A stretch of 64,000 nt of DNA from Lentisphaerae bacterium GWF2_50_93. Its GTDB lineage: Bacteria; Verrucomicrobiota; Lentisphaeria; Victivallales; GWF2-50-93. The stretch is from the NCBI GenBank assembly GCA_001804815.1, contig MHBI01000007.1, forward strand, positions 1 to 64,000. The letters are read 5' to 3'. Under the pieces are notes generated by a model. It did not search any database and was not told where the DNA came from. It saw only the letters and a list, made by a program, of their open reading frames with translations. The position numbers and the translations under genes are program-made. Numbering within the stretch: the stretch's first letter is position 1; every line of letters begins with the position of its first letter. Below are positions 2,829-19,192 of the stretch, piece by piece.

Positions 2829-3665
2829 TTATCCTTTGATTGCGCCGGCGGAGAGGCCTTTGACGAAAAGGCGCATTGTGAACAGGAATATGAGGATCAT
2901 CGGTATGCTGGCGATCGTATATCCGGCCATGAGCTGTCCCCATTCCTTGACGTATGCCGAATCCATCCTGACGAGTCCGACGGCCATCGGGAGCATGCTG
3001 TCATCGCGGATGACGACGAGTGGCAGTATGTAGTCGTTCCACAGGCCGATGAACTGCAGGATTCCGAGTGTCGAGAGGATGCTTCCGGACATCGGGAAGA
3101 CGATATTGTAGACCTGCTGGAGATGGGAGGCTCCGTCAACTTCGGCGGCATCGAAGAGGTCCTGCGGGATGTCCTCGATGAAGTTCCTGAGGATGTAGAT
3201 CTGGACGATCTGTCCTCCGGCGACATTGACAATGATAAGTGCCTGGAAGGTGTTCAGGAGGTTGAAATCCTTCAGGAGGACGAACAGCGGGATCAGGTTC
3301 GCCACGCCGGGCATGAGCATCAGGATCAGGAAGAAATACCAGAAGAAGCGCGAACCTGGCATTCTGAACCTGGCAAAGAAATATGCGGCGTTCAGAGTGA
3401 GGAACATGGTGATGAATATGGTGGTGACACTGATGAAGATGGTATTGAAGATGTATTTATAGACCATCCCCCAGGCGTATGTGTAGTTCTCTAAATGGAA
3501 AGGGAACATGAACGACCACGGATTTCCTACGAACTGCGCATTCGTCTTGCCGCTTGTGGCTATCATGACATAGAAAGGGAAGAGCGACAATGCAAGAATG
3601 AAGAAGATGAATAGATGCTTCATTATCTCACTAAAGACATTCTTAGACTTGTACATGCTTATCAT
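2829..3665 (-). CDS. Carbohydrate ABC transporter permease (MalG-like)
   Basis: This is an inner-membrane permease of the CUT1 sugar importer family. The 278 residues contain six predicted helices and the cytoplasmic EAA loop (FDAAEVDGASHLQQVYNIVFPM) that docks onto the ATPase, and the C-terminus SAGAIKG is typical. It is the MalG/LacG-type partner of the upstream permease, 13 bases away. No ATPase gene is present nearby; CUT1 systems often share an MsmK-type ATPase encoded elsewhere, so that is the likely arrangement here. The substrate cannot be read from sequence, but plant- or host-derived oligosaccharide is plausible given the neighbouring glycoside hydrolases. Confidence 0.9.
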   Translation of the reverse strand: MISMYKSKNVFSEIMKHLFIFFILALSLFPFYVMIATSGKTNAQFVGNPWSFMFPFHLENYTYAWGMVYKYIFNTIFISVTTIFITMFLTLNAAYFFARFRMPGSRFFWYFFLILMLMPGVANLIPLFVLLKDFNLLNTFQALIIVNVAGGQIVQIYILRNFIEDIPQDLFDAAEVDGASHLQQVYNIVFPMSGSILSTLGILQFIGLWNDYILPLVVIRDDSMLPMAVGLVRMDSAYVKEWGQLMAGYTIASIPMILIFLFTMRLFVKGLSAGAIKG

Positions 3666-3678
3666 GTTGTTTCCCTTT

Positions 3679-5133
3679 TTATTTCTCCACGCGGATGAAT
3701 CGGTTGTTGAGTTCCGTCAGGATGAGGATGAGGAAGAAGATGATTAGGCCGATCGCGCAGGCGTAGCCGGCCCTTCCCTCCCTGAAAGCTTCACGGAACA
3801 TATATAATCCGGGTATCATGAGCTTGCCATTGGGGCCGCCATCGATGTCGAACAGGATCAATATATGTGCATAAGCCTGGAGCGTGCCGATGATCATGAG
3901 GACCAGGTTTATCCTGACCTGCGTCATTATGAGCGGCATCTCAATATGCAGGAACTTCTGTATCGCAGTGGCGCCGTCGAGGTCGGCGGCCTCATATACG
4001 CTCGTATCAATGCCCTGGAGGCCTGCAAGGTAAATAAGCACGCCTACCACGCCGACCCAGGGGAACCCCCATATGATGAGCGCGGGGAGGACCAGATGTT
4101 CATTTCCAAGCCAGACAGGCATTACGCCTGTCTTGAAAATTCCGCCCCATCCGAGAATCCCGTCCATGTACACGAGGATGTCCATCACCTTGGTATAGAC
4201 GAGGACCCTGTTGAAGATACCTTCGTTTGGATTGAAGAAGAATTTCCAGATAAGGAGGTATACCATTCCGGGAATGATCATCGGGATCACGAAAAGCACG
4301 CGGTACCAGTAGTTCATCGTCTCGCTCTTGATCCTGTGGACGACGACAGCGGTTAGTATGGAAGGAAGCATCTTGACGATGTTGAAGGCGATCAGGACGG
4401 CGAGGACATAGAAGCCGCCCCACATGATCGTGTCGCCTCCGCTGTATGCGCCCAGGGCCCAGAAGGCAATGGAAAGGGATGCGAATGCATGCATTGTCCT
4501 TGCGCCCTCAATTGTCTTTAGTTTCTTCATCGCCGGGAGGAGCCATATGGCGAGTCCGCCAATGAGCATGATCGCGGAAAAGGCAAATACTGCGGAAAAT
4601 CCGGTGATCCTCAACAGGGCGGCAGCAAGGAAGCCGGCCGTCGAGAGGAGATATATCCATTTGTTCTCGCTCTCCTCGCTCACCAGGAATTGGAATACGA
4701 GGAGCCAGAAGCCCCAGAAGACAAGCGCTATCACCGTCTGGGACATGTTCGTATACAGGTTAGTTAGAGAGAAAGGCGCGGCAAATGCGAATCCTTTCAA
4801 GGCCAGGAGCACGGCGGTCAGGGCGAGGCAGAGGACTCCGGAAATAAATCTCAGGGTATTTGACAGGATATTCTTTTCCTTTGCGAAGATGATCACCATG
4901 TAGAAGAGGATGAAGAGGAGCACCCATGGAGTGACGACGCCAAGCACCTTCTTGAAGTTTTCCATGCCCACGAAATAATTGATGTCCTCGCCATTCCACC
5001 TGTAGAACGAATGGTACATCGCGCTTATTGCAGGATAGTAGGAGAACACGGCGACAAGCAGTACGCTGGGAAGCAGGAACAGGTAAAGATTCCAATAGTG
5101 CCTTACTCTTTTATATCCTATATCCCTTGGCAT
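3679..5133 (-). CDS. Carbohydrate ABC transporter permease (MalF-like) with multi-helix insertion
   Basis: This MalF/UgpA-type permease is 484 residues, against about 290-320 for the usual family. The N-terminus is ordinary (LFLLPSVLLVAVFSYYPAIS, then SFYRWNG and FVGMENFKKVL), and the C-terminal half is ordinary, with FVIPMIIPGMVYLLIW and the EAA loop YEAADLDGATAIQKFLHIEMPLI. Between them, residues of roughly 67-245, lies extra sequence with about five or six more hydrophobic helices joined by short loops. E. coli MalF also has an insertion, but that one is a soluble periplasmic domain. The gene is 2 bases downstream of the binding-protein gene. The role as permease is well supported; the function of the insert is unknown. 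Confidence 0.88.
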   Translation of the reverse strand: MPRDIGYKRVRHYWNLYLFLLPSVLLVAVFSYYPAISAMYHSFYRWNGEDINYFVGMENFKKVLGVVTPWVLLFILFYMVIIFAKEKNILSNTLRFISGVLCLALTAVLLALKGFAFAAPFSLTNLYTNMSQTVIALVFWGFWLLVFQFLVSEESENKWIYLLSTAGFLAAALLRITGFSAVFAFSAIMLIGGLAIWLLPAMKKLKTIEGARTMHAFASLSIAFWALGAYSGGDTIMWGGFYVLAVLIAFNIVKMLPSILTAVVVHRIKSETMNYWYRVLFVIPMIIPGMVYLLIWKFFFNPNEGIFNRVLVYTKVMDILVYMDGILGWGGIFKTGVMPVWLGNEHLVLPALIIWGFPWVGVVGVLIYLAGLQGIDTSVYEAADLDGATAIQKFLHIEMPLIMTQVRINLVLMIIGTLQAYAHILILFDIDGGPNGKLMIPGLYMFREAFREGRAGYACAIGLIIFFLILILTELNNRFIRVEK

Positions 5134-5135
5134 TC

Positions 5136-7265
5136 CTATTTCCCTCCGCTCATATTGGAAAGTCTTTCGTATTCCGAGAAGAAGGCCTTGCTGAAAGTGT
5201 TGTTGTCCTTGTCCTTGAAGCAGGGCTCCATCATGGCCTTTATCCTCATCTCCTCCAATGCGAATCCCACCAGGTTGTCCCAGCTCGCAACGAATTTCAC
5301 AGCAGCTTCGTTCCTCTTCTTCTCCACAAGCTTCTCCTGTTCGGGGGCATTTCCATCCTTGGCATCGACAAAGCTTTCCGGGAACATGTACTGGGCCAGG
5401 TAGAAGCTCCTGAAGACATTCTTGTCCGGAACACTTTCACGGGCCTTCCTTATAAGTTCAATGTAGTCGTTCGCGGCCGCGTTCGGCAATGCACCGCCGA
5501 GGACGTCAAGATATTTCGGATAGTCGTTCTCGCCTGATATGTAGGGCCAGAACGTCTGTTTTTCGAGCATGTCAGTCTTTGAGCCCATGATGAAATTGAG
5601 ATATCCCCAATAGCCTTTGAAGTTGGGCACGAAAGCCTCGAGGAACGGAGTGGGCTTGGCCCCCTTGACCGCCGGTATCCACTGTGCTATTTCATTGAGC
5701 TTCTGGTTGTTTTCAGGTGTCGTGCAGTACTGGAAGAAGTCCACGCACTCGGCCTTGCGCTCGGTGAACTTGGTTATACCGAACTTGAACCCGGTATCGG
5801 AGCTCTCCACGACTCTTCCAACTATATATTTCCCATACGCCGGATCGTCCTTTGCCGGCAGCGGGAAATCAAAAATACCGACGTCGAAGCTCCTCTTGCG
5901 CGTCATGCCCGCATCCGCCGCCGGTGAAACCGGATCCAAATCCGTGACCACTGGAACTGTCCTGCCCTTCTGGTCGGCGCAGTCTTCAACGACTATTCCG
6001 TATGACTCCCACAGGTTCGATCCTTTCACAGGATATAGGACCAGCTTCTTCACGTCGCCTTCCCTGCTTACCTGCAGCTGAACTGTCTTTGCGCCGGAGT
6101 TCGCCGCTTCCATGAGCCGCGCCGACGCCTCGGCGGAATTTGCGACCTGCTTGTCGTCCACCGACACAATCACGTCGCCGAAGGGCTGATCATTTATCTT
6201 CTTTATGTAGGAGCTCGCATCCCAGCTGCCGGACGTTATCATCACGGCGTTGCCCTGGACGAATGAGAAACCTGCATCCATCCTGTCGACGGACATGAAG
6301 CCGGGATTGAAATAGCTTGACAGCTTCCTGGTAAGTTCATTGTAGACCTTGTACTTCTCGTCCTGCAGGGAAAGCCCGCCGGAGAGCATGGCCTGCAGAA
6401 CGTCCTGGTAGTTCGCATATCCGTCGCATCCGAAGTCGATGTCAAGGCATCTGTCGGCGGAAAGCATTCCCGCATATCTGAATCTGAAGATATTCACCTG
6501 GTATCTGGAGGATGCTATCGGGACAACCGTCAGGCTGGATTTCTGCCTGGCCGGGGAGAAGAAACCCCACAGTCCGCTCTTCGATGACTGCTGGCTGTTG
6601 AAGGCCTTGATTTCATCATTCCTGGTCTTCACATATTCCTGGATCTTTTCGCAGTCCTTGAAAAGATCCTCGAGGGTCTCCGGTGGTCCATCCCTCTGGA
6701 GAATCTTCTTCATCAGGGTCTTGTTGTAGAAGATCCTGACGGTGAACTGGCTGAATCCCACGGCATAATAGTCAAGGAGCTCTGGAATATAGCTGTTCTG
6801 AAGCCCGTCGGTGAAGGTGTCCATCCACGGAGTGTCCTTGAACTCATTGTCCTTGTTGTAGGGGTTGGGCTGGCGCAGCTCATCGGTGATCGGCTGGAAA
6901 TATCTTCCGAGATAAAGCTTGACGTCGAAGAACCCGAGTTCAACAAGATCGGGGGCGGTCCTCCCGATGAGCTGGGTGGTGACCCACTGGGCGTAGGCGC
7001 GTTCGGTCACCGGGATCTGTATGATCTTGATATCCGGATGCAATTTCTCATACCCGTTGATCATTTCATCCACGGCATCCTTGATTCCAAGCTCCAACTG
7101 CCAGTGGCATATCCTTATGACTTTCTTCTTGAGGATTAACTCATCCTCCTTTATCTTATAGACATTCCAGAGCGCACCGACATAGCAGACAAGCAATATG
7201 GCGAGTCCGATGTAGTTCACAAAGGACATCCTTGATTCAATTTCGCCTGGTTTGTTGTCAGCCAT
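5136..7265 (-). CDS. Membrane-anchored sugar-binding protein with inserted permuted PDZ-like domain
   Basis: This is an extracellular solute-binding protein of the sugar ABC type (family 1), 709 residues from ATG 7265. That start has AGAGGAAAA just upstream and overlaps the previous stop as TAATG. A single helix (residues about 14-36) anchors it; there is no lipobox. Binding-protein sequence runs from VIRICHW through GNAVMITSGSWD and resumes at FDVGIFDFPLP. Between these, residues about 357-459 (DNA about 5889-6197) read as a PDZ-like domain with its halves swapped: GDVIVSVDDKQV to LVLYP first, then GIVVED to PVSPAADAGM. No such insertion belongs to the usual fold. It may tether the binding protein to a partner such as the upstream TPR protein; that is speculation. 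Confidence 0.88.
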   Translation of the reverse strand: MADNKPGEIESRMSFVNYIGLAILLVCYVGALWNVYKIKEDELILKKKVIRICHWQLELGIKDAVDEMINGYEKLHPDIKIIQIPVTERAYAQWVTTQLIGRTAPDLVELGFFDVKLYLGRYFQPITDELRQPNPYNKDNEFKDTPWMDTFTDGLQNSYIPELLDYYAVGFSQFTVRIFYNKTLMKKILQRDGPPETLEDLFKDCEKIQEYVKTRNDEIKAFNSQQSSKSGLWGFFSPARQKSSLTVVPIASSRYQVNIFRFRYAGMLSADRCLDIDFGCDGYANYQDVLQAMLSGGLSLQDEKYKVYNELTRKLSSYFNPGFMSVDRMDAGFSFVQGNAVMITSGSWDASSYIKKINDQPFGDVIVSVDDKQVANSAEASARLMEAANSGAKTVQLQVSREGDVKKLVLYPVKGSNLWESYGIVVEDCADQKGRTVPVVTDLDPVSPAADAGMTRKRSFDVGIFDFPLPAKDDPAYGKYIVGRVVESSDTGFKFGITKFTERKAECVDFFQYCTTPENNQKLNEIAQWIPAVKGAKPTPFLEAFVPNFKGYWGYLNFIMGSKTDMLEKQTFWPYISGENDYPKYLDVLGGALPNAAANDYIELIRKARESVPDKNVFRSFYLAQYMFPESFVDAKDGNAPEQEKLVEKKRNEAAVKFVASWDNLVGFALEEMRIKAMMEPCFKDKDNNTFSKAFFSEYERLSNMSGGK

Positions 7266-8194
7266 TATCTTTTTTCCTCTTTGGCCTTTGCAGGCTGATT
7301 TCCCGCTGTTCCCGATGCTCCAAGCGTTTTCGCCCTCTCCAAGGAGTAGTAGGATCTGCTGTCGCTTCCGCATTCGTTATAGAACTTCATGTAGTAGTCA
7401 ACCGCCGTCTTATTGTCTGAAAGCCTGGTTTCGGATATTCTTGCGACCTTGAAGTAGGCGGTGGCCTTGTACTGGAAGCTGGTGGGGCCGAACTTGCAGT
7501 AGTCGATGAGGGAGTCGACGCTTTTCTTGAAGTCACCGCGGAAGAAATAAACATTATAGAGGTAGGTTGCCATCACCGGGGCAAGCATTGCATTCCTGTC
7601 CTTTGCAACATCGATCTTCCTTGCATCCTTCCTGAATGGAACCAGATACTTGTCCATGTCGGCGCAATGGGAGGTGACCCTGGCGTCATTGACATCATCG
7701 GACTGCATGATCGCCCTTGAAAGCATGGCGTCCTGCGCAAAGACAGTGCCGGCGCCATCCTGCTGGACCTCGGTCCAGAGCTCCTCTGCCTTCCCCGCCT
7801 TGCCCGTATCCGATTCGCGGACAGATATCCTATACAGGCATTCAGCCTTCATGGATTTCCAGAACTGCAGGTACTTATGATCGGTACCGGCCTCCTTCAG
7901 ACACCTGTCATAAAGTATGACGGCCTTCCCGTAATCGTCGGAAGTGACACTGTTCTTCATGAGGAACTGGAAGCAGAACGCCTGTCCGGTAAGGGCCTGC
8001 AGCATCTCATCCTTGTCCGAAGCCTTTTTTTCGGCCTCCTCGAAATAACTCCGTGCCTTTTTCACCTCCTGGAACCTGTATTCAAGCCAGGCCTTCTTCA
8101 AGAGGACGGAAGCCTTGTCCTCCGCGGCGACAGCAGCGGAAAACGAAAAGGCAGTGAACAGAATCAACACAGCTGTCCTCGAAAGATGAAGCAT
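7265..8194 (-). CDS. Secreted TPR-like protein, first gene of sugar transporter unit
   Basis: The 309-residue product begins with a signal peptide (VLILFTAFSFSAAVAA) and then shows helical TPR-like units, for example ARSYFEEAEKKASDKDEMLQ, AVILYDRCLKEAG and AYFKVARISETRLSDNKTAVDYY. It is predicted to be periplasmic and probably mediates protein-protein contact. GGGGAGAGGG precedes the ATG closely. Its stop overlaps the binding-protein start, a strong sign of translational coupling, so it probably serves the same transporter. No catalytic motif was seen and the exact family is not recognised. A TPR partner for a PDZ-bearing binding protein would make sense but is not shown by the sequence. Confidence 0.75.
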   Translation of the reverse strand: MLHLSRTAVLILFTAFSFSAAVAAEDKASVLLKKAWLEYRFQEVKKARSYFEEAEKKASDKDEMLQALTGQAFCFQFLMKNSVTSDDYGKAVILYDRCLKEAGTDHKYLQFWKSMKAECLYRISVRESDTGKAGKAEELWTEVQQDGAGTVFAQDAMLSRAIMQSDDVNDARVTSHCADMDKYLVPFRKDARKIDVAKDRNAMLAPVMATYLYNVYFFRGDFKKSVDSLIDYCKFGPTSFQYKATAYFKVARISETRLSDNKTAVDYYMKFYNECGSDSRSYYSLERAKTLGASGTAGNQPAKAKEEKR

Positions 8195-8275: not shown

Positions 8276-9238
8276 TTATTTATTTTCAAAACATTCAGGA
8301 GTCGTCAGCTGCCTGTAGAAGTCCGCGTAGAGATCCTTCCTGTCCGAATTCCGCACTTCTATCGCCACGCGCGGATGCTCGTTCAGGACGCCTGTTATCA
8401 TGTATGGTATGATGTAGCCCCATTCGATTTCCTTGTTGAGATCCACGAAGACATCCTGGATCACCTGCAGGATGGGTTCAAGCTTGTATTTCGGGTCGCG
8501 CAGGCTGGCCACGAGAAGTTCCATGGGGCAGTTTCCGGCGCCGCGCCCTATTCCGTTCACAGTCACATCGCAGAAGGCCGAACCCGAGTTGATCGCCTGG
8601 ATGGAGTTCGCAAAGGCGAGCTGCATGTTGTTATGGGCGTGGAAACCGGTCTTCTTCGTCTTCAGCTCCTTCTTGTATATTGAAACAAGATTGTCAATGT
8701 CATGAGGGTATAATGAACCATTGCTGTCAACCACCGAAACCGCCGTCACGCTTGTCTCATTCTCGATCTTCCTGAGCCCTTCTTCGAGATCGAAAGTGTT
8801 GACGGTCGAAATCGCCATGATGTTTATGAAGGACTCATAGCCCTTCTCGTTGACCAGGTTGGCGAGGGCCACGGCCTTGTTTATGTCCTTCAGGTAAGTG
8901 GCGACCCTTACAAAGCTGAGAGGGGATTCGGATGCAGGCCTGAGATCGTCGGGATCAACCCTGTCTATATCTATCATCACGCCAAGCTTCATCTTTGTCT
9001 TTGTGTCGCCGATGATCTCCCTGACCGCATCGTCCTTTGTGAAGCGCCATGGACCGAATTCCTTTGGAGGGAAGAGCTTTTCGGACGCCCTGTATCCTAT
9101 TTCCATGTAGTCGACGCCGGCGGCGTCGAGGGCGAGGAAGACCTTCCTCACCATTTCATTAGAGAATTTCCATTTGTTGATAAGACCGCCATCCCTTATG
9201 GTGCAGTCAACTACTTTTATGTTTGTATTGTCGAACAT
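8276..9238 (-). CDS. HMG-CoA lyase-like / 4-hydroxy-2-oxovalerate aldolase-family protein
   Basis: This is a DRE-TIM metallolyase superfamily member. VVDCTIRDGG near the N-terminus is the DxTxRDGG metal and catalytic motif, and GFHAHNNMQLAFANS provides the HxHN metal ligands, followed by NGIGRGAGNCPMELL. Length is 320 residues from ATG 9238, chosen because CGGAG lies 8 bases upstream; a longer frame lacks a good ribosome site. Relatives include DmpG-type aldolases, LeuA-like synthases and uncharacterised aldolases in capsule and lipopolysaccharide loci. The substrate is not identifiable. It lies downstream of a terminator, so it is expected to have its own promoter. Confidence 0.8.
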   Translation of the reverse strand: MFDNTNIKVVDCTIRDGGLINKWKFSNEMVRKVFLALDAAGVDYMEIGYRASEKLFPPKEFGPWRFTKDDAVREIIGDTKTKMKLGVMIDIDRVDPDDLRPASESPLSFVRVATYLKDINKAVALANLVNEKGYESFINIMAISTVNTFDLEEGLRKIENETSVTAVSVVDSNGSLYPHDIDNLVSIYKKELKTKKTGFHAHNNMQLAFANSIQAINSGSAFCDVTVNGIGRGAGNCPMELLVASLRDPKYKLEPILQVIQDVFVDLNKEIEWGYIIPYMITGVLNEHPRVAIEVRNSDRKDLYADFYRQLTTPECFENK

Positions 9239-9266
9239 TTTATTACTCCGATATTTTAGTGTATAT

Positions 9267-9294
9267 AAAAAAAGCCCCGCCGTTGAGGCGGGGC
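9267..9294 (-). terminator. Rho-independent terminator
   Basis: A perfect 8-bp GC stem, GCCCCGCC and GGCGGGGC, surrounds a GTTGA loop. On the minus strand it is followed by seven T residues. It lies 26 bases past the stop of the TIGR04073-type gene and ends that transcript before the aldolase-like gene. Confidence 0.9.
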
Positions 9295-9319
9295 GGGAAT
9301 TCAAGGTTTCAACGGCTGA

Positions 9320-13006: not shown

Positions 13007-13035
13007 TTGACTTGGTTCCGGGAATTTAGTATAAT
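13007..13035 (+). promoter_or_regulatory. Sigma-70 promoter P2 of first pilin-like gene
   Basis: TTGACT (13007-13012) and TATAAT (13030-13035) are 17 bases apart. The first spacer bases (TGGTTCCGGGA) resemble those of the promoter at 14957, but the operator-like bases have diverged. The start codon is 38 bases past the -10 box. Confidence 0.7.
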
Positions 13036-13072
13036 GGCATTAGTTGGCGTTGAATCAACGGAGGCGAAGACA

Positions 13073-13882
13073 ATGAAGAGTTTAAAAAAATTCACCCTTA
13101 TCGAACTGCTGGTCGTAATTGCGATAATCGCAATCCTCGCAGCGATGCTGCTGCCGGCGCTCCAGAAGGCGAAGGACATGGCCCAGCGCTCAGGCTGCCT
13201 CAACAACCTGAAGCAGGTCGGAGTCGCCCTGCACACTTATGGAACCGACTACAACATGAGCCAGCCCGTAAGACTTGCAAGCGATGGATTGAACGGAGGA
13301 GGCGGATATGCCAGAGGCGTCAACAACACGCTTCGCGAATGGCTTTTTGAAGACTATACTGGAAAAGGAGTGAATACAGGAAACATGGCCCATGGGGGCA
13401 TCTGGATCTGCCCTTCCCATATGATTGGCGCGAACAAGACAACCGGAAACTACGACGGAAACTTTGTCCTTGAAGGGACTGCCGGCTCGCGCAAGAACAA
13501 TTCCTACTGGGGCAACTGGGAGCACTACAATACCGGCGGCGGCCGATGGTTCACGCCTTCGCTTACACCAGACGTGGAGCCGCCGTTCAGTTTTATGATC
13601 ACGTATTTCTCGAAACCAGAGCGCACTCCGTTCCAGTTCTGCGGAGAACGCTACTGGTGGCACAGCAGCCACCTCGAATGCCCCAGCGTCTTTGGCGGCT
13701 ATCCCTGGCACAAGCAGAAATGCCGGCCCACTCTCTTCTATGACGGCCATGCACTCGGCCTCGTTTCTGCAAAATACGTAAACGACACATCCAAGGTCGC
13801 CCTGGAAAACTACAGCACTTATTATTTCGGCAGGAACAAGACGGACAATAAAGCATGGGATTATCAACTCGATGAGTATTGA
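13073..13882 (+). CDS. Prepilin-type N-terminal methylation protein 1
   Basis: A short basic leader (MKSLKK) precedes [16 protein letters not shown], the prepilin peptidase cleavage and type IV pilin-like helix, so the protein is processed and inserted or assembled at the inner membrane. The body contains WICPS and a C-terminal histidine before a [11 protein letters not shown] stretch (H-X10-DG), close to the H-X9-DG motif of processing-associated pilin-like families common in PVC bacteria. The product ends YQLDEY, like its neighbours. ATG 13073 is chosen because GGAGG lies 8 bases upstream; length is 269 residues. The exact role is unknown; a link to polysaccharide use is inferred from the surrounding secreted enzymes. 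Confidence 0.88.
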
Positions 13883-14022
13883 CGTCAAGGAACACAAGCA
13901 GAAATTCACTGGAACCAACGCCGACGATCCATCCAATCACGCTACCGGCGGCCTATACAATGACAAATGGCGCCTATTCCGGCGGGAATCCTGAGAATGG
14001 AGAATTATTTCACATTTCGGGC

Positions 14023-14050
14023 TTGACTGGATTTCGTGAGCGGTTACATT
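14023..14050 (+). promoter_or_regulatory. Promoter with operator in spacer, second pilin-like gene
   Basis: TTGACT (14023-14028) and TACATT (14045-14050) are separated by 16 bases. CGTGAGCGGTTA (14035-14046) fills the spacer and overlaps the -10 box. A protein bound there would block polymerase. The arrangement matches base for base the spacing at 14957-14984. The rest of the 13883-14085 gap shows no gene. Confidence 0.62.
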
Positions 14051-14085
14051 AAAGAAAAGAGGATCATGCACTGGAGAGGAATCAG

Positions 14086-14907
14086 ATGATGAAAAAACTC
14101 TTTACATTGATTGAACTCCTGGTCGTAATCGCGATCATCGCGATCCTGTGCGCCCTGCTCCTCCCCGCACTTACCAACGCAAAGGAAATGGCAAGGATGT
14201 CGCTCTGCGGCTCCAACTTGAAACAGGTAGGACTCGCCATGAACACCTATGCAATTGACCATAATGATTCAATGCCATTCTATGCCGCCGGCAGCGATAA
14301 CTTTCAAAAAGGTTCAAGGGGGAGCGGTCTATGCATGCTGCTCGAAGATTATACAGGCCAGAAATATCAGGGCCCTCAGGATGCCGACAAGCTCCGCCGC
14401 GCAACTGGTGGAATATGGCTCTGCCCCTCGTCGTGGGTCAGCGTCACCACGAATTGGAGCGGCTGGATCGGCTCCGAGTATAAATCAGAGCACGGGGATT
14501 CAGGACAATATAATTCCTATGCCGGCCTCCCCCTCCATTATGGTGGCGACGCAATTAACGGAGAGGCCCCCAAGCCCCCGTTTTCTTTCAAAGTCAGAGC
14601 TTTTTCGAAACCCGCCCAAACCCCTTTCCAGTTCGACTCTACACACAGGGTCGACAATACAAAAGGAGAATCAAGCTACAGATACGCTGACTGGACTCAG
14701 GCCGAATCATGGCATGCCAAGGCCCGTCCTCTTGTCTATTTCGACGGTCATCTGTTGAACGTAACCTCATCTAAATACCGGTTCCAGAACTCGTCAGGCT
14801 GGTGCCTTGCAACAGGCAACTACAATAGTTATGAGCTAGGGACTGGATATACATACTCGGGACAGGCACCCCATAACGCATGGGATTTCTGGATCGACGA
14901 ATACTGA
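14086..14907 (+). CDS. Prepilin-type N-terminal methylation protein 2
   Basis: This paralogue has the leader MMKKL before [16 protein letters not shown], the usual prepilin cleavage and helix motif. It has GGIWLCPS in mid-protein and a [13 protein letters not shown] stretch that is an exact H-X9-DG motif, and it ends WDFWIDEY. It is closest to the third copy at 15033, sharing [15 protein letters not shown] and the PFQFDSTHR motif. GAGAGGA precedes the ATG pair; the start at 14086 or 14089 is equally possible. The 273-residue length is typical. The copies probably arose by tandem duplication, since both coding and promoter sequences are related. Confidence 0.88.
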
Positions 14908-14956
14908 CAGCTTTCATAAAACCATTGAAAAACAGCTGGATAATATTGAATGATAT

Positions 14957-14984
14957 TTGACTTGTCTCCGTGAGCGGTTACAAT
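14957..14984 (+). promoter_or_regulatory. Promoter with operator in spacer, third pilin-like gene
   Basis: TTGACT (14957-14962), 16 bases, then TACAAT (14979-14984). CGTGAGCGGTTA (14969-14980) lies in the spacer at the same offset as at 14035. The run TGAGCGGTTACAATT is close to E. coli lacO (TGAGCGGATAACAATT). A LacI-family repressor is inferred; none is encoded in the window. Confidence 0.65.
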
Positions 14985-15032
14985 TAGACGCGTCTGACAT
15001 TATCAAGCATACTTTGAACTAGGAAGACACAA

Positions 15033-15860
15033 ATGAAAAAAACTTTCTTCACGCTGATCGAGCTCCTGGTGGTAATTGCGATCATCGCAATCCTGATAGC
15101 GCTTCTGCTTCCGGCCCTTAACAACGCGAAGGAAGGCGCACGCCAGGTGACCTGCATGTCGAACCTGAAGCAGATCGGGCTTGCGATGAATACATATGCC
15201 GTCGACCATGATCTATCAATGCCGTTCCTCGACATGGGCTGGGATCCCTTCCAGAAAGGATCCAGGGGTGTCGGACTTGAATATGTGATGGCTGGCTATA
15301 CCGGTCAAACCTACAAGGGGCCTCCAGGAGCAAGCTATGACCGCCAGGCGACCGGTGGAATTTTCATATGCCCGTCATCATCATTGAAACTTGGAACTCG
15401 CTGGGATGCGGGATGGCCCGGTTCATATTACGAAGCCGAGCACGGTGATGGCGGACAGTACAACTCCTATTCCGGACTTTTCGAACACTATACCGGTTCG
15501 GCAATATATGGATTCAATTCGGCAAATCCGCCATTCTCCTACAAGGCCACGCATTTCACGAGGCCCAACCAGACGCCTTTCCAATTCGACTCAACGCACA
15601 GGAACGACAACACCCAGGGATTCGGCTCATACAGATATGGAAATCCATACCAGGCGGAATCCTGGCACAGGAAATCACGTCCGGTAGTTTATTTTGACGG
15701 ACACGCATACAGCGTCACATCCCTGAAATACAGGTTTGACATTGTAAACGGAGGCTGCCTTTCAATGGGTCCGTACAACACATGCGAAGTCGCTACCGGC
15801 GCATGCTTTTCCGGACAGGAGGCCCACAAGGCATGGGACTTCTGGGTCGACGAGTATTGA
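15033..15860 (+). CDS. Prepilin-type N-terminal methylation protein 3
   Basis: [21 protein letters not shown] gives a six-residue leader and the prepilin helix. The protein shares long stretches with copy 2, including [39 protein letters not shown] and the H-X9-DG motif [13 protein letters not shown], and ends WDFWVDEY. Length is 275 residues, and AGGAAG precedes the ATG. A hairpin starts at the stop codon. It lies directly before the large secreted protein, and may share its transcript. The likely location is the inner membrane facing the periplasm. Confidence 0.88.
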
Positions 15861-15887
15861 TATTTTCTTCCGGACGGAAGAAAATAT
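15860..15887 (+). promoter_or_regulatory. AT-rich hairpin ATATTTTCTTCC/GGAAGAAAATAT
   Basis: A perfect 12-bp stem with a GGAC loop begins at the last base of the pilin stop codon. There is no T-run after it, so it is not a classical terminator. It is nearly the same as the hairpin at 33646-33678, which suggests a repeated RNA or DNA element. Confidence 0.55.
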
Positions 15888-15934
15888 ACAAAGAGATTCA
15901 ACTTGAAATTCTTAATTAAGGGCACGGGAACAAT

Positions 15935-18271
15935 ATGAACAGCAAATCATTTCTCAACTCAATTCTATTTTCCGCGGCAATGCTGGCATGCAGGGCCTAC
16001 GCGGCCGAACCTGTCGATGCCGGCGCGCCTTTCGGCAAGCAGCTGCTGGTGCAGGAAATTGACTGTTCGAAGGACAATTCGGAAGCAATGTTCACCGAGT
16101 ATCCAAAAGGCGTCAGCAAAGTCGAGACCATACTTGGAACTCCATGCCGCATCCTCCCCAATGCAGAAGGCGGCTCGAAATATTTTGCATACCGTGTCGG
16201 CAAGGGGCTCAATCTCAAGCCTGGCACCGCCTACGTTCTCTCGGTGGAGTTCCCGGATGACAAGCCCCGCAGCATGTTCATATGCAACTGGGGCTGCGAA
16301 ACTGCCAGGGGCATCCACAGCGGAACGACAGTCGGCGACGCCATCAAGGCGCTTTACGTGAACCACAATCCTGAATCCCTCAAATTCCCGCTTTCAGGAA
16401 AAATTCAGACATGGCGCGAACTCTTCTTCCTCCACGACCGTTTTCCTGAAATAAAACGTCCGCGCGGACGCGAGACAAGGCCCTTGCTTCCACAGGACGG
16501 ATTCTGGGTCATCATCGCACAGCTCAAGGCTGAAAACAATCTCGAGTCGGCCGGAGCGGCAGTCTCAAAAATAAGACTCTTCGAAATCACCGATACCGGC
16601 GCCCTCGCCCAGAAAATAAATTATCCTCCCGCCGAACTTCCGCGCAGGTATCTTTTCTTCCGCGAGGAAATGGCGGACGGCGTCATTGCCCAGGGACACA
16701 AGCCTGAAGAAAAACTTCCGGAACTGCGCGGGGTGGCAAATCCGGTGGACTGGTATGAATACAAAGTCAAGCTCATGAAATTCCTCGGAATGAACACGTT
16801 CACCAAGGACCTACTCGAGTTCGGACACAACCAGGGCTGGGATTCCTCCAAGTACGGCGGGGACAAATGGTACAACCAGTCATCGACCCGGACGCTTTGG
16901 ACCGATATAATCCAGATGCTTGCAAAATACCCGGACTTCTACGTATTTCCCTATTATGAATACGCCGGCAGCATAGGCCAGGACAAGAATGTCGCTATCG
17001 GCAATCAGCGCCGCTGCGAAACTCTCAAAGGGGGCAAGGACTACACGCACATAGAATGGTGCCACAAGACCAACGCCGACATCATCGATCCGGATTTCAT
17101 CGAGGACGCGAAAAAACTTCTTGATGTCACCATTGTCGAGAACAAGGACAAGGCGAAGTTCATCGGGGCATGGTTCCGCCCCAGGCCGGAGGCGAATCCG
17201 ATAAGCTTCAACGCCAAGGACATTGAAATCTTCAATTCTGAAACAAAGCAGGATAAGAAAATCACGCGCGAGGATCTCCAGAAGGACAAGGCGCTCCTTG
17301 ACAAATACTATGAATGGTGGTTCAAGAAAAGGCGCGACTTCAATCTCGCACTGTCGGAATATCTGCGCAAGGAAGTCAGTCCCGAAGCTGTCCTGCTCTA
17401 TACAACCGATTCGAGCGAGCCGGGCATCGGACTTCCCGGCTCAATCGTTGCGAAAGGAATGAAGAATCCATGGGAATGGAAGACTGCGGTTGTCAACGAC
17501 GCCCCGGAGAAATGGGAGAAAAATCTCGACGGCAGCAGGGAATTCTTCAAGTTCGTGAAATCAGTGCCGTACGACAAGGTAGTTGCGGAGGACATGTATC
17601 TGCAGGCGCTGCTTGAGAAGCATGGCACATGGGGCAGTTATGAATGGCAGCACGCGAATCCCTGGAACGATCCGCAGAACTACAAGGACAAGCCGGGAAT
17701 CATGCTCAGCTATTCCTTCAACAGGCTCTATACCGTCTCCTCGAAGAAGGCTTTTGACGCATTCAGGACGCCGTCGGGACTCGCGATCATCCGCCATTAC
17801 GGCCTGAATGAAAACGACATGAACGACGGCAAGGATCCAATCCTGGGCTATTTCGTGGCCGATGTCGAGCGCACGGGCCCCTACTGCATGATCGGCGAGG
17901 CGCGCGCCTTCGCAAACGGAGATCCGCGCTTCATCGGGTATCTCGCAGGCAACAGCTTCAACCGGGGATTCCCGGAATATGTGCGCACATTCAACGCGGC
18001 ATTCCTGTCGCTCCCGGCCATGCCAAGCAAGATAATCGATAATGCCTCAGCCGATCCTGAAGTCATTGCCAGGGCGTTTCCAACGGAGAAGTACGGGACG
18101 TATGTCGGCATAGTCAACACGGGTTTGACAGATAAGAACGCCATCGAAGTTTCACTGCCTAAATGCAGCAAGGTTACAGATACGGTTTCCGGCGAGACCA
18201 TTCCTGTAAAGGATGGAAAAATAAAGCTTTCAATGTATCCCGGACAGCTAAGGGCGCTGAATCTCAGGTAG
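15935..18271 (+). CDS. Large secreted glycoside hydrolase-like protein, family not recognised
   Basis: The 778-residue protein starts with a signal peptide (ILFSAAMLACRAYAA). Residues about 30-230 look like a beta-rich N-terminal module. The middle (about 240-640) has the character of an alpha/beta barrel hydrolase, with WYEYKVKLMKFLGMNTFTKD, FYVFPYYEYAG, acidic-aromatic patches such as LLYTTDSSEPG and WGSYEWQHANPW. The end (about 680-778) resembles a small beta-sandwich closing domain. I cannot assign a CAZy family or catalytic pair. Its position between pilin-like genes and before a mutarotase-like and a deacetylase gene supports a periplasmic or surface polysaccharide role. The C-terminus shows no sorting signal. 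Confidence 0.6.
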   Translation: MNSKSFLNSILFSAAMLACRAYAAEPVDAGAPFGKQLLVQEIDCSKDNSEAMFTEYPKGVSKVETILGTPCRILPNAEGGSKYFAYRVGKGLNLKPGTAYVLSVEFPDDKPRSMFICNWGCETARGIHSGTTVGDAIKALYVNHNPESLKFPLSGKIQTWRELFFLHDRFPEIKRPRGRETRPLLPQDGFWVIIAQLKAENNLESAGAAVSKIRLFEITDTGALAQKINYPPAELPRRYLFFREEMADGVIAQGHKPEEKLPELRGVANPVDWYEYKVKLMKFLGMNTFTKDLLEFGHNQGWDSSKYGGDKWYNQSSTRTLWTDIIQMLAKYPDFYVFPYYEYAGSIGQDKNVAIGNQRRCETLKGGKDYTHIEWCHKTNADIIDPDFIEDAKKLLDVTIVENKDKAKFIGAWFRPRPEANPISFNAKDIEIFNSETKQDKKITREDLQKDKALLDKYYEWWFKKRRDFNLALSEYLRKEVSPEAVLLYTTDSSEPGIGLPGSIVAKGMKNPWEWKTAVVNDAPEKWEKNLDGSREFFKFVKSVPYDKVVAEDMYLQALLEKHGTWGSYEWQHANPWNDPQNYKDKPGIMLSYSFNRLYTVSSKKAFDAFRTPSGLAIIRHYGLNENDMNDGKDPILGYFVADVERTGPYCMIGEARAFANGDPRFIGYLAGNSFNRGFPEYVRTFNAAFLSLPAMPSKIIDNASADPEVIARAFPTEKYGTYVGIVNTGLTDKNAIEVSLPKCSKVTDTVSGETIPVKDGKIKLSMYPGQLRALNLR

Positions 18272-18358
18272 GGACTATTTTTTTCCTTTGGAATATGATA
18301 TAATTGAAAAAGCAACATAGCAACGTACTTGAAAAACAGGTAAATGGAAGTTTAAGAT

Positions 18359-19192
18359 ATGAATGAGAAATTGAAATTCACGCTGATCGAGCTTCTGGTC
18401 GTAATTGCGATTATCGCAATACTTGCCGCCCTGCTCCTGCCTGCCTTGAAAAATGCAAGGGATTCGGCAAAGCGCATCTCCTGCGTGGCAAACCTCAAGC
18501 AGATTGGGCTTTCCCAGCTTAACTATGCTGGCGACAACGTTGATCGCCTGCCATATTCCTACACGTCGGGCGGCGCCTGGGACAGGGGACGAGGCATCAA
18601 CCTGGAGCGGCTCCTGGCAGACTATGTCGGATTCAAATATCCGTCATCTGATGCTTTTCAGGCAATAGGAGGTATTTTTATTTGTCCCTCGTCAAACATG
18701 AGCCTTTACAAGAACGGCAGCGGGAAATGGCGCTACCTGCATGGAACCAATACGGCATATGACGGCCTGAATTCATATACAGGTTCGAGGATCTACCAAT
18801 GCACCAACGGCAATTCAAACGCCAATCCCCTGCACGACCCTACGCTCGTAGCCTTGACGGGTCCGTTTTCGACATTCTATTACAGGAATCCCGCAAGCAA
18901 GCCAATCCACATATGTTCACGCGGCAGATCTCAGTCTCCAGAAGATTACCTCCCTTTCGGAAGCACCCACTCGGCTATAGATGACTGGAATGGCCCTGCT
19001 TCAAGCTGGCATACTCCCAACGGTCCCCGTCCTACTGTCTTCCTGGATGGACACGCCACTATACTAGTGATGAAAAAATACCGGATGAACGTATGGAGCA
19101 ATCTCGATACTGACCCTGGCAGCAACTCTTATTGGTGGGAACAAGGCCCGAATGGTCTTAAACCTTATGAAAACAGCATAGAAGAGTATTGA
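18359..19192 (+). CDS. Prepilin-type N-terminal methylation protein 4
   Basis: [22 protein letters not shown] gives the prepilin leader and helix. The body is more diverged than copies 1-3 but keeps [18 protein letters not shown] and GSTHS. The motif before DG is longer (WH, 11 residues, DGHA), and the protein ends NSIEEY. Length is 277 residues. A TATAAT at 18299-18304 lies in the 87-base gap upstream, but no matching -35 box or CGTGAGCGGTTA site is seen, so its control differs from copies 1-3. Start follows a weak AAGTTTAAG. Confidence 0.87.

What the first reader, a model, noticed from the sequence alone, without database searches (positions are those of the whole stretch)
5889..6197. Circularly permuted PDZ-like domain inserted in a sugar ABC binding protein
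Seen: between two normal binding-protein blocks (GSWD and FDVGIFDFPLP) lie about 100 residues where GDVIVSVDDKQV...LVLYP comes before GIVVED...VPVVTDLDPVSPAADAGM. In ordinary HtrA-type PDZ domains the order is the reverse. Established: PDZ domains bind C-terminal peptides; sugar-binding proteins do not normally carry one. Inference: a permuted PDZ inserted by its natural loop, perhaps docking the binding protein to the upstream TPR protein or an outer-membrane partner.
Basis: partly seen in the sequence, partly recalled or inferred. Interest (0 to 1): 0.78.

Follow-up and report, generated by a model that had tools for sequence, protein, structure and literature searches.

The report
Rearranged PDZ domain inside sugar-binding protein
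A bacterial sugar-import protein carries, spliced into one of its loops, what looks like a complete peptide-binding-type (PDZ) module whose first and second halves are in swapped order; the same insert is kept in eight related genomes, which makes it a clean natural example of a domain that was both rearranged and transplanted.

Summary
Residues 362-459 (window 5889-6182, minus strand) of a 709-residue, membrane-anchored carbohydrate-type solute-binding protein (SBP) are an inserted domain. Orthologues from the same four-gene cassette in other families of the phylum lack it: SGSWDAxSYLKKIxDQP-EESR-FEVGIFD. Eight genomes of one order carry it, as one clade (96/95). It is under purifying selection (dN/dS about 0.13).

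Pfam's PDZ_2 model matches mainly the first half in natural order. Rotating the insert to start at ..YGI gives one continuous PDZ match. All eight inserts gain 13-20 bits at the same cut point; twelve ordinary PDZs of the same genome gain under 1 bit; shuffles never exceed 5.8 bits. So it is a circularly permuted PDZ, cut between alphaA and betaD. In native order it aligns end to end with the junction between neighbouring PDZs in tandem arrays of site-2 (RseP) and HtrA proteases, which suggests one register-shifted repeat of such an array.

Structure prediction was too weak to prove the fold. Docking to the TPR neighbour is not supported: insert-less cassettes keep the TPR gene. The ligand is unknown.

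The parts
5136..7265 (-). Solute-binding protein, 709 aa, N-terminal membrane anchor, SBP_bac_8/SBP_bac_1 fold
   Evidence: Pfam PF13416 7.6e-14 and PF01547 2.1e-11
5889..6182 (-). Inserted circularly permuted PDZ-like domain, residues 362-459
   Evidence: absent from orthologues L040-L042 and paralogue L003; rotation test
6030..6179 (-). C-terminal half of a normal PDZ placed first: betaD (GDVIVSV), betaE, alphaB (SAEASARLMEAA), betaF, betaA (KKLVLYP), residues 363-412
   Evidence: Pfam PDZ_2 profile positions 33-76; secondary structure of the low-confidence models
5973..6029 (-). Linker VKGSNLWES joining the old termini, then the carboxylate-loop-like YGI and betaB, residues 413-431
   Evidence: rotation optimum lies at or just before YGI in all eight; G423 and D428 invariant
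5904..5960 (-). betaC (VPVVTDL) and alphaA (SPAADAGM), the N-terminal half of a normal PDZ placed last, residues 436-454
   Evidence: S447 P448 A449 A452 G453 invariant in eight inserts
6183..6233 (-). Host block before the insert, SGSWDASSYIKKINDQP, residues 345-361
   Evidence: conserved in insert-less orthologues
5856..5888 (-). Host block after the insert, FDVGIFDFPLP, residues 460-470
   Evidence: conserved in insert-less orthologues
7158..7223 (-). N-terminal membrane anchor, residues 15-36, apparently uncleaved
   Evidence: sequence; conserved in homologues
6522..6626 (-). Variable extension (residues 214-248) seen in insert-bearing sequences and short in insert-less relatives; possibly co-gained
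   Evidence: about 35-50 residues against 19 between the same anchors
7265..8194 (-). Secreted TPR protein, first gene of the cassette; its stop overlaps the SBP start
   Evidence: Pfam TPR_14 6e-5; conserved position in all cassettes
3679..5133 (-). MalF/UgpA-type permease, 484 aa with a long N-terminal membrane region
   Evidence: Pfam PF00528 3.2e-10
2829..3665 (-). MalG/UgpE-type permease, 278 aa
   Evidence: Pfam PF00528 1.1e-14

Best explanation
A complete PDZ-like domain, circularly permuted so that its termini lie between alphaA and betaD, was inserted once into the loop between the GSWD helix and the FDVGIFDFP strand of a membrane-anchored, periplasmic carbohydrate-type binding protein, in the ancestor of this binding protein's lineage in one order of Lentisphaerota-like bacteria. 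Its element order (betaD-betaE-alphaB-betaF-betaA-linker-betaB-betaC-alphaA) is what results from taking one repeat, in a shifted register, out of a tandem PDZ array such as those of RseP or HtrA proteases. The most likely role is an add-on docking module: the PDZ groove binds an exposed peptide or beta-strand of another periplasmic protein and holds it near the importer, without replacing the sugar-binding or permease-docking parts. Shown by sequence: insertion, permuted order, single clade, selection. Inferred: folding as one domain (about 0.92), tandem-array origin (about 0.6), partner docking (about 0.45). The confidence given is for the structural and evolutionary part taken together.
For: Precise empty site in orthologues of the same cassette and in paralogues of the same genome. 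Rotation restores one continuous PDZ match in all tested inserts. The insert-bearing proteins form one clade, 96/95, with one change of state on the tree. dN/dS is about 0.13 in the insert. Both low-confidence AlphaFold2 runs give helices and strands in the permuted PDZ order. In native order the insert profile aligns end to end across neighbouring PDZs of A. aeolicus RseP, DegP and GRASP structures and of RseP/HtrA proteins of the phylum. G423 of the carboxylate-binding-loop-like Y/F/A-G-I/L/F is invariant.
Against: No confident structure model: only two sequences could be used for prediction, and Foldseek gave no match at E <= 0.001. The insert evolves faster than the host lobes (mean pairwise identity 0.39 against 0.57-0.65), which could mean a loosely constrained decoration. 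No cassette protein has a conserved PDZ-type C-terminus specific to insert-bearing genomes. The donor, S2P or HtrA, is not resolved.
Confidence: 0.72

Rival explanations
1. The insert is a permuted PDZ fold but only a structural decoration or spacer of the SBP; it binds no peptide.
For: Lower conservation than the host; no candidate ligand in the cassette; the clade also has another variable extension.
Against: Purifying selection and an invariant GLGF-loop-like glycine and PDZ framework in eight genomes. These also fit mere fold maintenance, so the test is weak.
Confidence: 0.3
2. The PDZ acts inside the molecule: it clamps the co-occurring variable extension (214-248) or another SBP segment and tunes opening and closing of the binding protein.
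For: The extension is about 35-50 residues in the insert-bearing sequences measured and 19 in insert-less relatives; the insert follows the helix that begins with the GSWD tryptophan.
Against: The extension is poorly conserved (0.27 pairwise identity) and internal, whereas PDZ domains prefer C-termini; no structural contact could be tested.
Confidence: 0.15
3. Two half-PDZs, not one domain: the halves pair with halves of a second SBP copy, giving a domain-swapped dimer.
For: The same sequence order would arise by excision from a tandem array, and swapping is topologically possible.
Against: The insert has one full set of PDZ elements joined by a linker of about ten residues, so closing on itself is simplest; binding proteins of this class are usually monomeric (general knowledge).
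Confidence: 0.08
4. The region is not an insert but an ordinary, diverged binding-protein lobe.
For: None found.
Against: Empty-site orthologues and paralogues keep both flanks without it; Pfam finds PDZ there.
Confidence: 0.01

Closest known systems
RseP / site-2 protease PDZ tandem (A. aeolicus aq_1964, PDB 3wkl; E. coli RseP, Inaba et al. 2008, cited in PMC10202637 and PMC4597795)
   Same: Best PDB match of the insert profile (1.2e-12); native order aligns end to end from one PDZ into the next; RseP PDZs are themselves described as circularly permutated.
   Different: From my knowledge of the RseP sequence its PDZs begin at betaC; the insert begins at betaD, two elements further. Host is a solute-binding protein, not a protease.
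HtrA/DegP tandem PDZ domains
   Same: Also matched end to end across PDZ1-PDZ2.
   Different: HtrA PDZ domains start at betaB and lie C-terminal of a protease; here one domain lies inside a loop in swapped order.
Natural PDZ permutants listed by CIRPIN (PMC12667903): standard, 2z9i type, 2hga type and a fourth cluster from the AlphaFold database
   Same: Natural circular permutation of the PDZ fold.
   Different: The standard and 2z9i types are cut elsewhere; 2hga starts at betaC as I recall it. The termini of the fourth form are given only in a figure, so identity with the present form cannot be excluded.
Carbohydrate solute-binding proteins SBP_bac_8/SBP_bac_1 working with MalF/MalG-type permeases
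   Same: Fold match, GSWD block and downstream strand, permease pair in the operon.
   Different: Internal PDZ, apparently uncleaved N-terminal anchor, EF-hand-like loop, large size.

Membership tests
PDZ domain | Sequence match to PDZ profiles over most of the domain | tested here: met
   After rotation PDZ_2 1.1e-9 for the window insert and up to 5e-12 for orthologues, above the Pfam cut-off. In native order only part of the profile is matched, or two stretches in reverse order.
PDZ domain | Usual element order betaB-betaC-alphaA-betaD-betaE-alphaB-betaF with betaA first (standard) or last (bacterial) | tested here: not met
   Halves are swapped in all eight; hence a circular permutant, not a standard member.
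PDZ domain | Three-dimensional PDZ fold | tested here: inconclusive
   AlphaFold2 pLDDT 53 and 33, Foldseek without significant match; secondary structure order fits.
PDZ domain | Carboxylate-binding loop (x-phi-G-phi) at the start of betaB | tested here: met
   Y/A/F-G-I/L/F in all eight, G423 invariant.
PDZ domain | Binding of C-terminal or internal peptides | not testable with these tools
   needs binding assays
Solute-binding protein of a carbohydrate ABC importer | SBP_bac profile match and operon with a MalF/MalG-type permease pair | tested here: met
Solute-binding protein of a carbohydrate ABC importer | Sugar binding | not testable with these tools
   family-based inference only
Site-2 (RseP-type) PDZ | Domain starts at betaC with betaB last | tested here: not met
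   insert starts at betaD with alphaA last; it matches the inter-domain register of the array instead

The most novel reading that the evidence does not exclude
A previously undescribed natural circular permutant of PDZ (termini in the alphaA-betaD loop), produced by register-shifted excision of one repeat from a tandem PDZ array of a periplasmic protease, and recruited as an internal docking module of an ABC importer binding protein.
Probability: 0.35. Interest if true: 0.65.

Novelty: new variant of a known kind. Interest (0 to 1): 0.5.

Why it matters
Circular permutation and domain insertion are usually inferred from structures; here both can be traced in one lineage, with empty-site orthologues, eight filled sites and a plausible donor type. 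It supports a simple route to permuted domains: cutting one repeat out of a tandem array in a shifted register. If the PDZ binds partners, it would add a protein-docking function to a sugar-binding protein, a combination for which the full-text searches I could run found no report.

Tried and rejected
AlphaFold2 on the insert and on the whole protein: low confidence, because only the window and one search for related loci sequence were available for the alignment. I did not send genome-search loci to the predictor because they are not on its list of allowed sources. Foldseek against PDB with the poor insert model gave nothing significant; short RseP PDZ matches appear at E 4-10 and carry no weight. 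Docking to the TPR protein through its C-terminus: rejected as the reason for the insert, since insert-less cassettes keep the TPR gene and its C-termini vary. Docking to permease C-termini: they are nearly the same with and without the insert. Assigning the donor to S2P: the four hits in the order outside the SBP are all S2P, but of three phylum-wide hits opened, two are HtrA and one S2P, so it stays open. Literature searches combining PDZ with solute-binding proteins or insertion found nothing relevant. The genome-contig scan returned only one close relative.

Full report
WHAT IS THERE. The gene at window 5136-7265 (minus) encodes a 709-residue protein with an N-terminal membrane anchor and a carbohydrate-type solute-binding fold (Pfam SBP_bac_8 7.6e-14, SBP_bac_1 2.1e-11). 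It is the second gene of a cassette: secreted TPR protein (7265-8194), binding protein, MalF/UgpA-type permease (3679-5133), MalG/UgpE-type permease (2829-3665). No ATPase is in the cassette. The nearest named relative found is Lentisphaerae bacterium GWF2_49_21 (85% identity over the whole protein).

INSERTION. Residues 362-459 (5889-6182) are absent from the closest insert-less orthologues. In L040 and L042 (596 and 601 aa frames, same cassette, another family of the phylum) and in L041 the sequence runs SGSWDAxSYLKKIxDQP-EESR-FEVGIFD or close to it. The window protein has SGSWDASSYIKKINDQP, the insert, then FDVGIFDFPLP. A paralogue in the same genome (L003) likewise lacks it: GTWDALSLQEQAKGNFTVGIMDFPMP. 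Eight genomes carry the insert: window, L006, L007, L008, L009, L037, L038, L039. On a tree built from the host part only, they form one clade (96/95) and need one change of state; the sister group is L040-L042. Within 137 genomes of the order and 388 sampled in the phylum, strong full-length matches to the insert (E <= 1e-34) occur only in these eight.

PDZ IDENTITY AND PERMUTATION. In natural order Pfam PDZ_2 matches residues 363-408 against profile positions 33-76, the second half of the domain. Rotated to begin at LWESYGI, the insert matches positions 12-76 in one piece at 1.1e-9; the three orthologues tested in rotated form give 1.9e-8, 2.9e-11 and 5.2e-12. An independent HMM built from 12 other PDZ domains of the same genome was used for a full rotation scan: every one of the eight inserts peaks with its start at or a few residues before the YGI-type motif, gaining 13 to 20 bits; genuine PDZs gain less than 1 bit by any rotation; 197 shuffled inserts reach 5.8 bits at most over the rotations sampled. 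The order is betaD, betaE, alphaB, betaF, betaA, linker, betaB, betaC, alphaA. The strands and helices of both AlphaFold2 runs follow that order, although those models are of low confidence and Foldseek found nothing significant. The fold is therefore supported by sequence, not proven by structure.

WHERE IT CAME FROM. A profile of the eight inserts in native order aligns from end to end to the stretch from the middle of one PDZ to the middle of the next in tandem PDZ proteins: the A. aeolicus RseP homologue 3wkl, DegP-like proteases, GRASP, RseP proteins of the same order and RseP or HtrA proteins elsewhere in the phylum. Cutting one repeat from such an array in a shifted register gives exactly this permutant, with the old inter-domain link becoming the internal linker. 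This is an inference; duplication of an inserted PDZ followed by loss of the outer halves would look the same. The donor family is unresolved.

CONSTRAINT AND FUNCTION. Between window and L006 the insert has dN/dS 0.13 (dS 1.66, near saturation, so approximate) against 0.06 for the host. Mean pairwise identity is 0.39 in the insert and 0.57-0.65 in neighbouring host regions. Invariant positions are the PDZ framework (GD, L397, R401, P412, G423, D428, V439, SPA, A452 and G453). The glycine of the carboxylate-loop-like motif is kept in all. This fits a working accessory domain. I think peptide or protein docking in the periplasm is the likeliest role, at about 0.45, but no partner is identified: permease C-termini are nearly the same in insert-less cassettes, and the TPR protein is present there too, with variable C-termini. 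Rivals (passive decoration, intramolecular clamp, domain-swapped dimer) are not excluded.

COMPARISON AND NOVELTY. Natural PDZ permutants are known: the algal D1 protease form (PMC3503759), RseP (Inaba 2008, cited in PMC10202637 and PMC4597795), and four forms in all according to a 2025 preprint (PMC12667903). That preprint shows the termini of the fourth form only in a figure, so I cannot say whether the present cut is a further form. I found no report of a PDZ inside a solute-binding protein in the searches run; most subscription papers are not covered. Verdict: new variant of a known kind.

Noticed in passing
window 6408-6443 (residues 275-286) and L003: The SBP family has an EF-hand-like loop: canonical DLNRDGVVGNDE in the insert-less paralogue L003, degenerate DIDFGCDGYANY in the window protein.
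   Followed up: partly
window 6522-6626: A variable extension of roughly 16-31 residues between C..I..Y and PIAS occurs in the insert-bearing sequences measured and is absent from insert-less relatives.
   Followed up: partly
window 7158-7223: The binding protein is held by an N-terminal membrane anchor rather than a lipoprotein or cleaved signal; conserved in all homologues aligned.
   Followed up: no
window 3679-5133: The MalF-type permease has a long extra N-terminal membrane region; BPD_transp_1 begins only at residue 261; length 480-495 aa is conserved in all cassettes.
   Followed up: no
window 8276-9304: A DRE-TIM (HMGL-like) aldolase-type gene lies just upstream of the cassette in the window, L083 and L077; possible metabolic link.
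   Followed up: no
window 13007-19192: Several nearby genes share the [24 protein letters not shown] pilin-like (type II secretion) N-terminus, as a clustered family.
   Followed up: no
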